Part shown: positions 15,918 to 19,199 of the stretch, in pieces
How the letters are laid out: every line of letters starts with the position of its first letter
How positions within the stretch are numbered: position 1 is the first letter of the stretch
From: Conexibacter sp.
Lineage (GTDB): Bacteria; Actinomycetota; Thermoleophilia; Solirubrobacterales; Solirubrobacteraceae
Assembly (NCBI GenBank): GCA_025964325.1
Contig: JAOPZA010000237.1
Span: 1-39,949, forward strand
DNA: 39,949 bases
Direction: 5' to 3'
Program-made: the position numbers and the translations under genes
Notes under the pieces: generated by a model
Seen by the model: the letters and a program-made list of their open reading frames with translations, nothing else
The model's database searches: none
What the model was told of the DNA's origin: nothing

Positions 15918-16928
15918 ATGCAGCGATTCGCTGCACGTGGCGTCGCAACCCTTGCCGTCCTGGCGAGCGCTCTCATGCTCGTCTCGGGCTCGGCACTGGC
16001 AGCCGGAGCGCCCACCGTGGCGACCGGAGCGGCGTCCAGCGTCACCAACACCACGGCGACCATCGCCGGAACCGTCAACCCGCAAGGGGCGGCGACCAGC
16101 TACAGCTTCCAGTACGGGGTGACGACCAACTACGGCCAGAACACGGCCAACCAGTCCGCCGGCGCGGGCACGGCGAACTCGGCCGTGAACGCCAACCTGA
16201 CCGGCCTCTCGACCGGCTCGACGTACCACTACCGCGTGATCGCGACGAACGCGAGCGGCACGCAGGTGGGCGCGGACCAGACGCTCACGACCACCGGCCC
16301 GCCGCCGCCCCCGTCGGCTGCGCCCTCGGCGACGACCGGGAGCGCTTCGACGACGGCCAACGCGGCCACGCTGAACGGCTCGGTCAACCCGAACGGCGTC
16401 GCCTCGTCGTACTACTTCGAGTACGGCCCGACCGCCAACTACGGCTCCCAGACGCCGCCGCACAGCGCCGGCTCGGGCGCGGGCAGCGTCGCCGTCTCGG
16501 CCAGCGTCAGCGGCCTGACGCAGGGCACGACCTACCACTACCGGCTCGTCGCGGCCGGTCCCGGCAGCGCCGTCAACACCGGCAACGACGCGACCTTCAC
16601 GTTCGGTCAGACGAGCCTGTCGTTCTTCGGGCAGGACGCGTTCGCCGACCAGCACGGCGTCGGCGCCGTCTTCCTCGGCTGCTTCGGCTCGGTTCCGTGC
16701 ACCGGCACGAGCGTGACGCTGTCGCGCAGCGGCAAGACGCTCGGCACGCGCGGGGGCTTCACGATCCAGCCGAACAGCGGCGGCTTCGTGCACTTCAGCC
16801 TGAACACGCTCGGCCTGTCGCTGCTGAAGGCCCGCGGCTCGGTGCGCCTCAACGTGGTCGCGGACCCGACGACCGGCCCGAACGTCGCGTCGATCGTGAC
16901 GCTGCAGCAGTTCACGGCGGCGGGCTAG
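15918..16928 (+). CDS. Secreted protein with two fibronectin-III-like repeats
   Basis: The 336-residue product has a signal peptide (MQRFAARGVATLAVLASALM, cleavage near SALAAG) and two repeats of about 90 residues. Each opens with a strand such as TATIAGTVNPQGAATSYSFQYG or TLNGSVNPNGVASSYYFEYG and ends TGLSTGSTYHYRVIATN or SGLTQGTTYHYRLVAA, typical of fibronectin-III-like domains in actinobacterial surface proteins. A Pro-rich linker separates them. The last 130 residues (TSLSFFGQDAFADQHG, GSVPCTGTSVTLSRSGK) form a different beta-rich domain with a Cys pair. CGGAGG is 6 nt before the ATG at 15918. The protein is probably exported to the cell surface or medium; its binding partner is unknown. 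The stop codon lies inside the outer stem of the first hairpin element. Confidence 0.82.
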   Translation: MQRFAARGVATLAVLASALMLVSGSALAAGAPTVATGAASSVTNTTATIAGTVNPQGAATSYSFQYGVTTNYGQNTANQSAGAGTANSAVNANLTGLSTGSTYHYRVIATNASGTQVGADQTLTTTGPPPPPSAAPSATTGSASTTANAATLNGSVNPNGVASSYYFEYGPTANYGSQTPPHSAGSGAGSVAVSASVSGLTQGTTYHYRLVAAGPGSAVNTGNDATFTFGQTSLSFFGQDAFADQHGVGAVFLGCFGSVPCTGTSVTLSRSGKTLGTRGGFTIQPNSGGFVHFSLNTLGLSLLKARGSVRLNVVADPTTGPNVASIVTLQQFTAAG

Positions 16929-16953
16929 TCTCGCGCAGAGCGCTCGCCTAGCC
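16923..16953 (+). repeat. Hairpin element, copy 1
   Basis: Outer stem GGCTAG/CTAGCC (16923-16928 with 16948-16953), internal loop with CTC and TCG, inner stem GCGC/GCGC and loop AGA. The 18-mer at 16929-16946 recurs exactly at 16962-16979. The stem includes the stop codon of the secreted-protein gene. Confidence 0.65.
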
Positions 16954-16955
16954 TG

Positions 16956-16986
16956 GCGAAATCTCGCGCAGAGCGCTCGTTTTCGC
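16956..16986 (+). repeat. Hairpin element, copy 2
   Basis: Same core as copy 1 (CTC, GCGC, AGA, GCGC, TCG) but a different outer stem, GCGAAA/TTTCGC (16956-16961 with 16981-16986). It lies 33 bp after copy 1, measured core to core. Confidence 0.65.
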
Positions 16987-17023: not shown

Positions 17024-17056
17024 GGGCGGGCGCACCAGTCGGTGCGCCCGCCCTTT
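17024..17056 (+). terminator. Rho-independent terminator
   Basis: GGGCGGGCGCACC (17024-17036) pairs perfectly with GGTGCGCCCGCCC (17041-17053) around AGTC and is followed by TTT. This 13-bp stem is the strongest terminator candidate in the window and insulates the TetR promoter, which begins 6 nt later. Confidence 0.85.
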
Positions 17057-17061
17057 CGCCA

Positions 17062-17095
17062 TTGACAAACCATGTGAGTGAGTGCATACTCACAC
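17062..17095 (+). promoter_or_regulatory. tetR promoter with embedded operator
   Basis: The -35 box TTGACA (17062-17067) and the -10 box CATACT (17085-17090) are separated by exactly 17 bp. The operator TGTGAGT-N8-ACTCACA (17073-17094) covers the spacer and -10, so a bound repressor would block polymerase. Within it, TGAGTG-N4-CTCACAC (17079-17095) recurs before the exporter gene. The predicted transcription start is at or next to the ATG at 17099. Confidence 0.8.
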
Positions 17096-17098
17096 CTA

Positions 17099-17695
17099 AT
17101 GTCGCCGCCGACCTCGAACCCCGCCCGTCAGCTCTCGACCGCCGCCGAGCGGCGCGAGGCGCTGATCGAGGCGGCCGTCGTCGTCTTCGCCGAGCACGGC
17201 TACCACGGGACGCCGACGACGGAGATCGCCCGCGCGGCCGGCATCTCGCAGGCCTACCTGTTCCGTCTCTTCCCGACCAAGGCCGAGCTCTACGTCGCGA
17301 CGATCGAGCGCTGCTATGAGCGCATCTCCGCCGCGATGCGCGGCGCCGCACAGGACGCCCGCGCGAGCGGGGAGGAGGACCTGCTCGGGCAGATGGGCCT
17401 CGCCTACACGGCGCTGCTGCGCGACCCCGCCGTGCTGCGCGGGACGCTGCACTCGTTCGCCGCCGCGTCCGGCGGCGATCCGGCGGTCGTCGCCGCGGTG
17501 CGCGGCGGCTATGCCGGCCTCGTGACCCTCGTCAAGCAGCTGACCGGCGCCGACCAGGACCGCATCCGCGACTTCTTCGCGACCGGGATGCTGTTGACGG
17601 TGCTTGCCTCGATGGACGCGCGCTCGATCGACGCCGACTGGGTCGCGACGCTGCTCGGCGGCGACATCGCCGACTGCTTCGGACCCGACGTCTGA
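17099..17695 (+). CDS. TetR-family transcriptional repressor
   Basis: This 198-residue TetR regulator has the N-terminal helix-turn-helix RREALIEAAVVVFAEHGYHG, TTEIARAAGISQAYLFRLFPTKAELYVA, followed by an all-helical ligand-binding domain with no recognisable inducer signature. The ATG at 17099 is preferred over the GTG at 17078 because the latter lies inside the promoter spacer; the mRNA would be leaderless. It is followed, after 70 nt, by a drug-exporter gene, and both are preceded by TGAGTG-N4-CTCACAC. I infer autorepression and repression of the exporter, released by the exporter's substrate, as with QacR/QacA-like pairs. Confidence 0.92.
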   Translation: MSPPTSNPARQLSTAAERREALIEAAVVVFAEHGYHGTPTTEIARAAGISQAYLFRLFPTKAELYVATIERCYERISAAMRGAAQDARASGEEDLLGQMGLAYTALLRDPAVLRGTLHSFAAASGGDPAVVAAVRGGYAGLVTLVKQLTGADQDRIRDFFATGMLLTVLASMDARSIDADWVATLLGGDIADCFGPDV

Positions 17696-17724
17696 GAACG
17701 GCGTCCTTTTTTTGGCCTGTGAAA

Positions 17725-17741
17725 TGAGTGACCGCTCACAC
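17725..17741 (+). promoter_or_regulatory. Second TetR operator, before MFS exporter
   Basis: TGAGTG-ACCG-CTCACAC repeats the motif found in the tetR promoter (TGAGTG-CATA-CTCACAC), with a TGTGA half-site just upstream in both (17718-17722 here). Only the four central bases differ. No strong -35/-10 pair is evident, so the exporter may be read from the tetR promoter, from a weak promoter here, or both. Confidence 0.7.
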
Positions 17742-17765: not shown

Positions 17766-19199
17766 ATGCTGCGCTCACGTCGCTTCTGGACGTCGATCGT
17801 GACGAGCTTCGCGCTCTTCATGGTCACGCTCGACAACCTCGTCGTCACGACGGCGCTGCCGTCGATCCGCGTCGACCTCGGCGCCTCGATCTCCTCGCTC
17901 GAGTGGACCGTCAACGCGTACACGCTCGCGTTCGCGGTGCTGCTGCTGCCGGCCTCCGCGCTCGGCGACCGGCTCGGGCGCCGCCGTGTCTTCAGCGCCG
18001 GCCTCGCGCTCTTCACGCTCGCCTCCGCGGCTGCCGCCCTGTCGCCGAGCACGAGCGCGCTGATCGTCGCGCGCGCCGTCCAGGGCGCCGGCGCGGCGGC
18101 CGTGATGCCGCTGTCGCTGACGCTCCTGTCGGAGGCCTTCCCGGCCGGCAGACGCGGGCTCGCGCTCGGCATCTGGTCCGGCGTCAGCGGCCTCGGCGTC
18201 GCGCTCGGACCGCTCGCCGGCGGCGCGGTCGTGCAGGGAATCTCGTGGCACTGGATCTTCTGGCTCAACGTCCCCGTCGGGATCGTCCTCGTGCCGTTGG
18301 CGGCGACCCGCCTGACCGAGTCGCGCGGCGCCGGGCGCCGCTTCGACGCGACCGGCGTCGCGCTCGCGGCCGCCGGCCTGCTCGGCCTCACGTTCGGGAT
18401 CGTGAAGGCGCAGGACCTCGGCTGGACGAGCGCGACCGTGCTCGTCGCGCTGCTCGGCGGCATCGCGCTGCTGGCCGCGTTCGTCGCCTGGGAGCGGCAC
18501 ACGCCCGAGCCGATCCTGCCGCTGCGCTTCTTCCGCAGCCGCGCCTTCAGCGCCACCAGCGGCGTCTCGATCGCGATGTACTTCGGCGTCTTCGGCGCGA
18601 TCTTCCTGCTGGCCCAGTTCTTCCAGACGGCCCAGCACTACACGCCGCTCGAGGCCGGCCTGCGGACGCTGCCGTGGACCGGCACGACGATGCTCGTCGC
18701 CCCGATCGCCGGGATCCTCTCCGACCGGATCGGCTCGCGGCCGCTGATGGCGCTCGGGCTTGCGCTGCAGTCCGGCGCGCTCGCCTGGCTCGCGCTCGTC
18801 TCCGAGCCGACGACGCCGTATGGCCAGCTGCTCGTCCCGTTCGTGATGGCCGGCGCCGGGATGGCGCTCGTCTTCGCGCCCTCGGCCAACGTCGTGCTGT
18901 CCTCCGTGCGGGCGGACGAGGCCGGGCAGGCGTCGGGCGCGACCAGCACGATGCGCGAGGTCGGCGGCGTGCTGGGCGTCTCGGTCCTCGCGACCGTCTT
19001 CTCCGGCGCGGGCTCCTACGCCTCGCCGCAGGCCTTCGCCGACGGGGTCACGCACGCCCTGTGGGTCGGCGCGGCGGTGCTGGCGGCCGGCGTCGTCTGC
19101 GCCCTGCTCGTCCCGGGCCGCGCGCGGCAGGCCGAGCTGGCCGAGGCGTCGCGCACGGCGGACGAGCCGTCGCTGGGGAAGGTCGAAGCGCTCGCCTGA
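17766..19199 (+). CDS. MFS drug exporter, DHA2 (EmrB/QacA) family
   Basis: A 477-residue proton-coupled multidrug exporter with about 14 hydrophobic helices, the DHA2 layout. Helix 1 has MVTLDNLVVTTALPSI, matching the family D1 motif (LDxxVVNVALP). The loop motif A is seen as GDRLGRRRVF, and motif C as GVALGPLAGGAVVQG followed by WHWIFWLNVPVG. The C-terminal tail is short and acidic. The ATG at 17766 is preferred, with GAGGAAGGA about 8-15 nt upstream; the in-frame ATG at 17724 would overlap the operator. The TetR gene directly upstream is its likely regulator. The substrate is unknown; quaternary ammonium compounds, dyes and antibiotics are typical of the family. Confidence 0.93.
   Translation: MLRSRRFWTSIVTSFALFMVTLDNLVVTTALPSIRVDLGASISSLEWTVNAYTLAFAVLLLPASALGDRLGRRRVFSAGLALFTLASAAAALSPSTSALIVARAVQGAGAAAVMPLSLTLLSEAFPAGRRGLALGIWSGVSGLGVALGPLAGGAVVQGISWHWIFWLNVPVGIVLVPLAATRLTESRGAGRRFDATGVALAAAGLLGLTFGIVKAQDLGWTSATVLVALLGGIALLAAFVAWERHTPEPILPLRFFRSRAFSATSGVSIAMYFGVFGAIFLLAQFFQTAQHYTPLEAGLRTLPWTGTTMLVAPIAGILSDRIGSRPLMALGLALQSGALAWLALVSEPTTPYGQLLVPFVMAGAGMALVFAPSANVVLSSVRADEAGQASGATSTMREVGGVLGVSVLATVFSGAGSYASPQAFADGVTHALWVGAAVLAAGVVCALLVPGRARQAELAEASRTADEPSLGKVEALA

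What the first reader, a model, noticed from the sequence alone, without database searches (positions are those of the whole stretch)
17062..17741. Matched TetR operators in the tetR promoter and before the drug exporter
TGAGTG-N4-CTCACAC occurs at 17079-17095, over the -10 of a clean TTGACA-17-CATACT promoter, and at 17725-17741 just before the DHA2 exporter; a TGTGA half-site precedes both. Two non-coding sites identical at 13 of 17 positions flanking a TetR gene strongly indicate autoregulation plus exporter control by an inducer.
Basis: partly seen in the sequence, partly recalled or inferred. Interest (0 to 1): 0.55.

Follow-up and report, generated by a model that had tools for sequence, protein, structure and literature searches.

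The report
Twin operators of a TetR-regulated exporter
A bacterial TetR-type repressor gene and the drug-exporter gene beside it each carry the same kind of probable repressor-binding site over their promoter region, an ordinary self-limiting export switch that is well conserved across its bacterial family.

Summary
Confirmed. TGAGTG-N4-CTCACAC lies at 17079-17095, over the -10 of TTGACA-17-CATACT before tetR, and at 17725-17741 before a DHA2 exporter, and nowhere else in the 4.34 Mb assembly. Within the window the 13/17 match is marginal (17 of 300 shuffles reach it); comparison decides. A degenerate form has 12 hits in 7 genomes of the genus, all at this locus, no control hits. A matrix trained on the genus finds site 1 in 32 of 33 and site 2 in 29 of 33 tetR-exporter pairs of other genera.

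Correction: TGTGA before site 2 is found in 1 of 33 loci; at site 1 a TGAG/TGTG repeat is conserved in 29 of 46. Additions: tetR mRNA is probably leaderless; a T-run stands before site 2 where TTGACA stands before site 1, so the exporter probably has its own promoter; where the exporter precedes tetR, TTAG-type palindromes lie before the exporter (12 of 12 loci read).

Best reading: TetR represses itself and the exporter until an unknown inducer releases it. New member of a known kind; binding and inducer untested.

The parts
17062..17067 (+). -35 element TTGACA of the tetR promoter
   Evidence: 1 found, shuffle mean 0.0. TTGAC ends 11-13 nt before site 1 in 39 of 46 loci.
17085..17090 (+). 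-10 element CATACT of the tetR promoter, inside operator 1
   Evidence: The site-1 centre is CATA in 26 of the 31 loci whose TetR has Gln at the first position of helix 3.
17079..17095 (+). Operator 1 (core TGAGTG-N2-TACTCA, then CAC)
17073..17078 (+). Extra TGTGAG just before operator 1; with the core it makes TGTGAGT-N8-ACTCACA, possibly a second dimer register
   Evidence: inverted repeat 17073-17079/17088-17094. TGAG or TGTG directly before the core in 29 of 46 loci; strict TGTGA within 12 nt in 12 of 46.
17099..17695 (+). tetR, 198 aa, probably translated from a leaderless mRNA
   Evidence: Pfam TetR_N 53.5 bits, cut-off 24; start position and lack of SD.
17707..17713 (+). T-run (7 T) at the -35 place of the probable exporter promoter; a weak hairpin before it also allows a terminator
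17725..17741 (+). Operator 2 (TGAGTG-N2-CGCTCA, then CAC)
17766..19199 (+). DHA2-family drug exporter (MFS), 477 aa, with an SD-like GAGGAAGG ahead of the ATG
   Evidence: TIGR00711 294.6 bits, cut-off 230.2; SD.

Best explanation
The two sites are operators of the TetR-family repressor encoded between them. A dimer on operator 1 covers the spacer and -10 of the tetR promoter and limits tetR's own transcription; a dimer on operator 2 covers the exporter's own, weaker promoter region. A small molecule, probably an export substrate, binds the repressor's C-terminal domain and releases both. The tetR transcript starts at or within a few bases of its start codon and lacks a ribosome-binding site, so little repressor is made, while the exporter has a Shine-Dalgarno sequence. 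Shown here: the sites, their conservation, overlap of site 1 with a promoter, confinement to this locus. Inferred: binding, repression, inducer, the exporter's own promoter, the transcript start.
For: Exact pattern only at this locus in the assembly. Degenerate pattern in 7 of 7 genus genomes, 12 hits, all beside this tetR, 0 control hits. Matrix built from the 14 genus sites, tested on 33 non-genus tetR->exporter loci: site 1 in 32 of 33 (scores 9.3 or more), site 2 in 29 of 33 (14.5 or more), none of these reached by 100 shuffles of the same stretch; best score in one tetR coding window from each of the 40 loci 1.6. TTGAC ends 11-13 nt before site 1 in 39 of 46 loci. A run of 5 or more T ends 9-12 nt before site 2 in 25 of 33 (sd 0.59), against sd 5.9 for its distance from the tetR stop. 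Where the exporter precedes tetR, a TTAG-type palindrome lies before the exporter in 12 of 12 loci read. First in-frame start codon 19-26 nt after the start of site 1 in 45 of 46, SD-like string in 0 of 45. Helix 3 and half-site go together in the 62 labelled loci: Ala with T[GA]AG in 45 of 45, Pro with TTAG in 16 of 17.
Against: No binding or expression data. The match between the two sites alone is marginal (17 of 300 shuffles). Four of 33 non-genus loci lack a recognisable site 2 (L014, L072, L075, L081) and one lacks site 1 (L075). The helix/operator association rests on 2-3 changes on the tree and is not significant by independent pairs; one unlabelled locus with Gln-Pro (L023) has a mixed TGAG/CTAA site. 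The consensus scan finds no exporter promoter, and 8 of 33 loci lack the T-run. Some tetR homologues keep site 1 with no close exporter found next door (L010, L015, L060).
Confidence: 0.9

Rival explanations
1. One operon: the exporter is transcribed only from the tetR promoter, and site 2 acts as an internal roadblock or is a spare copy; the T-run is a weak terminator of tetR.
For: tetR and exporter are on the same strand 70 bp apart. The scan finds a 6-pair hairpin before the T-run at the end of tetR (1 found, shuffle mean 0.8) and no consensus exporter promoter.
Against: The T-run keeps a near-constant distance to site 2, not to the tetR stop, at the place where TTGACA stands before site 1. 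A fold better than 95% of shuffles precedes it in only 3 of 20 loci, the window's not among them.
Confidence: 0.2
2. The sites belong to another regulator encoded elsewhere, and the neighbouring TetR does not bind them.
For: No binding data; the helix/operator covariation has few independent events.
Against: The degenerate pattern is confined to this locus in 7 genomes, the sites follow the tetR-exporter pair across genera, and they appear in a changed form where gene order and helix 3 of the repressor differ.
Confidence: 0.04
3. The matched sites are a chance resemblance.
For: 13 or more of 17 matches occur in 17 of 300 shuffled spacer pairs.
Against: Conservation in place and sequence in tens of loci.
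Confidence: 0.01

Closest known systems
LfrR/lfrA of Mycobacterium smegmatis (TetR-type repressor upstream of an MFS exporter)
   Same: Repressor gene upstream of the exporter; the repressor is described as repressing the lfrRA operon by binding its promoter region (PMC3051877, passages seen). Our exporter matches the LfrA model, far below its cut-off (175.8 of 825 bits).
   Different: Described there as one operon; here the exporter has its own operator and probably its own promoter. LfrR itself was not compared with our repressor.
TetR/tetA with two palindromic operators
   Same: Two operators, autorepression plus exporter repression (PMC3511530, passages seen).
   Different: tetR and tetA are divergent with both operators in one spacer; here the genes are in tandem and the operators about 650 bp apart.
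AcuR of Rhodobacter sphaeroides
   Same: TetR-family repressor, first gene, leaderless mRNA, operator over the promoter, later genes with SD (PMC3017554, passages seen).
   Different: Different operator, a catabolic target, one operon promoter.
AmtR and TetR helix 3 contacts
   Same: Gln and Ala at the first two positions of helix 3 (Q51, A52 here) correspond to AmtR Gln53/Ala54 and TetR Gln38/Pro39, which contact the operator (PMC2723105, passages seen; the alignment to our protein is mine).
   Different: Other operator and regulon. That paper finds the Ala54 contact minor, so it does not by itself support A52 as a specificity residue.

Membership tests
TetR family of regulators | TetR_N DNA-binding domain | tested here: met
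   PF00440 53.5 bits, cut-off 24
TetR family of regulators | Binds a palindromic operator near its own gene | tested here: inconclusive
   Conserved imperfect palindromes present; binding is not testable here
TetR family of regulators | A ligand releases the repressor | not testable with these tools
   No ligand assay
DHA2 drug exporters, EmrB subfamily | TIGR00711 above its curated cut-off | tested here: met
   294.6 bits, cut-off 230.2
DHA2 drug exporters, EmrB subfamily | Exports a drug | not testable with these tools
   Models of named exporters (TcmA, EmrB, SmvA, LfrA, QacA/B) match only below their cut-offs (best 25 of 59 families shown)
Leaderless mRNA | Transcript starts at the start codon | tested here: inconclusive
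   Start codon 8 nt after the -10 in the window; no SD-like string in 45 of 45 loci. The transcript start is not measured
LfrR-type repressors | Sequence relation to LfrR | not tested
   No LfrR model among the hits; LfrR itself was not compared

The most novel reading that the evidence does not exclude
This family holds a natural series in which the first two residues of the repressor's recognition helix (QA, HA, QP) and the operator half-site (TGAGTG, T[GA]AGTG, TTAG-type) change together, in most TTAG loci with the gene order turned round, while the exporter promoter uses a T-run in place of TTGACA; the series would be a ready-made test of how TetR repressors and their operators co-evolve.
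Probability: 0.4. Interest if true: 0.5.

Novelty: new member of a known kind. Interest (0 to 1): 0.3.

Why it matters
It gives a well-defined, single-locus repressor-operator pair in a little-studied lineage (Conexibacter and relatives), with both operators, the promoter and a probable leaderless start mapped, and a set of natural variants for testing TetR specificity or for building sensors. The mechanism itself is standard.

Tried and rejected
Chance resemblance: marginal in the window, rejected by comparison. A wider regulon: with up to 2 mismatches 11 hits against 19 control hits; 4 of the 11 lie in this promoter or at site 2, and the 7 others were not examined for neighbouring genes. The T-run as an intrinsic terminator: a fold better than 95% of (single-base) shuffles in 3 of 20 loci. 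TGTGA before site 2 as a conserved half-site: 1 of 33 loci. Gln/His and Ala/Pro covariation as statistical proof of binding: too few independent changes. Sequence search of solved structures: 100 matches, best E 1.3e-10 over residues 15-81 (Mce3R); most of the 60 shown cover mainly the DNA-binding part, so they give no close relative with a known operator.

Literature: searches for operator strings with TetR, efflux regulators, Conexibacter with TetR, Gln38, TetR target prediction and operator contacts showed no title or abstract start on this system. Searches returned nothing; the longer lists were capped (20 of 975, 15 of 97, 10 of 182, 12 of 29). Absence from print is not claimed beyond that.

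Rows dropped. The family search gave 91 rows; 86 were analysed, with 2 hits from the same order (L018, L027) making 88 loci; five rows (in G079, G096, G102, G160, G161) were not fetched. Of the 16 loci, L031 and L032 are the same contigs as L005 and L004, L033 was used only, and L034-L046 were not used. The site-1 set of 46 is those of the 88 that fit a typed expression with T[GA]AG. The spacing count used 33 of 40 tetR->exporter loci: L014, L072 and L075 had no site-2 anchor; L077, L078, L081 and L114 had uncertain anchors and were dropped. None of those four shows a T-run in the 32 nt printed before the anchor, so the count is 25 of 37 with them. One search labelled 62 of the 88; the rest had no assigned site. 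Its 12 exporter-first loci and 4 others were given the TTAG label by me, from the printouts. Of 25 loci with the exporter upstream of tetR (my count), 12 were fetched further.

A fault found on the way: the tetR stop was taken too far downstream in loci where the alignment runs past a stop (L011, L069); one search recomputed the stops.

Full report
What is there. On the + strand the window holds a TTGACA-17-CATACT promoter (17062-17090), a tetR-family gene (17099-17695, 198 aa) and, 70 bp later, a DHA2-family exporter (17766-19199, 477 aa). TGAGTG-N4-CTCACAC occurs at 17079-17095 and 17725-17741 and nowhere else in the 4,336,881-base assembly, with no hit of the reversed control pattern. The core of each is an imperfect palindrome: TGAGTG-CA-TACTCA and TGAGTG-AC-CGCTCA. 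Site 1 also forms GTGAGT-N4-ACTCAC and, with the preceding TGTGAG, TGTGAGT-N8-ACTCACA.

Is it more than chance? Comparison settles it. TGAGTGNNNNMTYACAC has 12 hits in the 7 genomes of the genus, all beside the orthologous tetR, and no control hit. I take the genus as Conexibacter because contigs of two of the seven have the lengths of contigs of Conexibacter sp. CPCC 206217 and CPCC 205762. A weight matrix made from the 14 genus sites, applied to 33 tetR->exporter loci of other genera, finds site 1 in 32 (score 9.3 or more) and site 2 in 29 (14.5 or more); none of these scores was reached in 100 shuffles of the stretch, and the highest score in one coding control window from each of 40 loci is 1.6. 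The misses are L075 (both sites) and L014, L072 and L081 (site 2).

How the sites sit on the promoters. TTGAC ends 11-13 nt before site 1 in 39 of 46 loci, and the -10 lies inside the site. Before site 2 of the window there is no TTGACA. In its place a run of 5 or more T ends 9-12 nt before the site in 25 of 33 loci (sd 0.59), while its distance from the tetR stop varies (sd 5.9); such runs occur in 31 of 5337 windows of 45 nt over all the loci, these included. Four of the 8 loci without it have an interrupted T-rich stretch at that place (L005, L013, L057, L071). Of 20 loci tested, 3 have a fold better than 95% of shuffles before the T-run. I infer that the T-run is the -35 part of the exporter's own promoter rather than the terminator of tetR; the -10 match is poor and the consensus scan does not find this promoter. 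The centre of site 1, part of the -10, is CATA in 26 of the 31 loci whose TetR has Gln at helix 3, while the centre of site 2 varies, as expected if site 1 serves as both operator and -10.

Leaderless repressor. In 45 of 46 loci the first in-frame start codon after the core lies 19-26 nt after the start of site 1, which leaves 7-14 nt after the -10, and in none of those 45 is there an SD-like string; of 32 exporters with a start found, 26 have one. This resembles the leaderless acuR operon (PMC3017554, passages), where the repressor is translated less than the genes after it. The transcript start is inferred.

The extra half-site. The window has TGTGA before both sites, but only site 1 keeps it or a relative: TGAG or TGTG directly precedes the core in 29 of 46 loci (strict TGTGA within 12 nt in 12 of 46), while TGTGA lies before site 2 in 1 of 33, this locus. 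Site 1 may therefore hold a second dimer or a shifted register, and site 2 should not; this is untested.

Who binds? In the 46 loci with site 1, the first residue of helix 3 (Q51 here) is Gln in 31, of which 29 have the upstream repeat, and His in 15, none with it. On the tree the His label needs 3 changes, and independent pairs (2 on well-supported branches) give no significance. At the next residue (A52), Ala goes with T[GA]AG half-sites in 45 of 45 and Pro with TTAG in 16 of 17 of the 62 labelled loci, but with only 2 changes on the tree. For 12 of those 16 the sites were read upstream of the exporter, because there the exporter precedes tetR: at least one TTAG-type palindrome in 12 of 12, two in 11 of 12 by eye (one of the two imperfect in L129 and L131), with TTGAC close by in 9 of 12. 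The two residues correspond to TetR Gln38 and Pro39, which contact the operator (PMC2723105, passages; the correspondence to our protein is my alignment); the same paper rates the Ala contact of AmtR as minor. All this points to the local TetR as the binder without proving it.

Mechanism. Most likely the repressor holds down both promoters and an exported compound releases it, the standard TetR circuit with tandem genes. Shown: sites, conservation, overlap of site 1 with a promoter, confinement to the locus. Inferred: binding, repression, inducer, separate exporter promoter, leaderless start.

Known or new. Two-operator TetR control of an exporter is classical (PMC3511530, passages), and a tandem repressor-exporter pair is known in lfrRA (PMC3051877, passages; the paper was found). 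This is a new member of a known kind. The comparative details (T-run at the -35 place, leaderless tetR in the family, operator variants that go with helix 3 and gene order) are modest additions; I did not see them in the listings, several of them capped, which is weak evidence of absence. Predicting operators from conserved neighbourhoods is an established method (Snowprint, PMC10858194, abstract and outline).

Noticed in passing
window 17024-17053: A perfect 13-bp inverted repeat with 4 nt between the arms, followed by TTT, just upstream of the tetR promoter: possibly the terminator of the gene ending at 16928.
   Followed up: no
window 16930-16946 and 16963-16979: A perfect 17-bp direct repeat (33-nt spacing) between the upstream gene and tetR.
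   Followed up: no
L127-L138, upstream of the exporter: In other genera of the family the exporter precedes tetR and TTAG-type palindromes lie before the exporter: at least one in 12 of 12 loci, two in 11.
   Followed up: partly
L010, L015, L060: tetR homologues that keep site 1 with no close exporter found next door; in G024 (L010) the best exporter match (45% identity) lies on another contig, and in G013 (L015) and G068 (L060) none passed 1e-80.
   Followed up: partly
L025, about 150 nt before the exporter start near 2988: An exporter 866 bp after tetR has two further operator-like palindromes shortly before it (printout).
   Followed up: no
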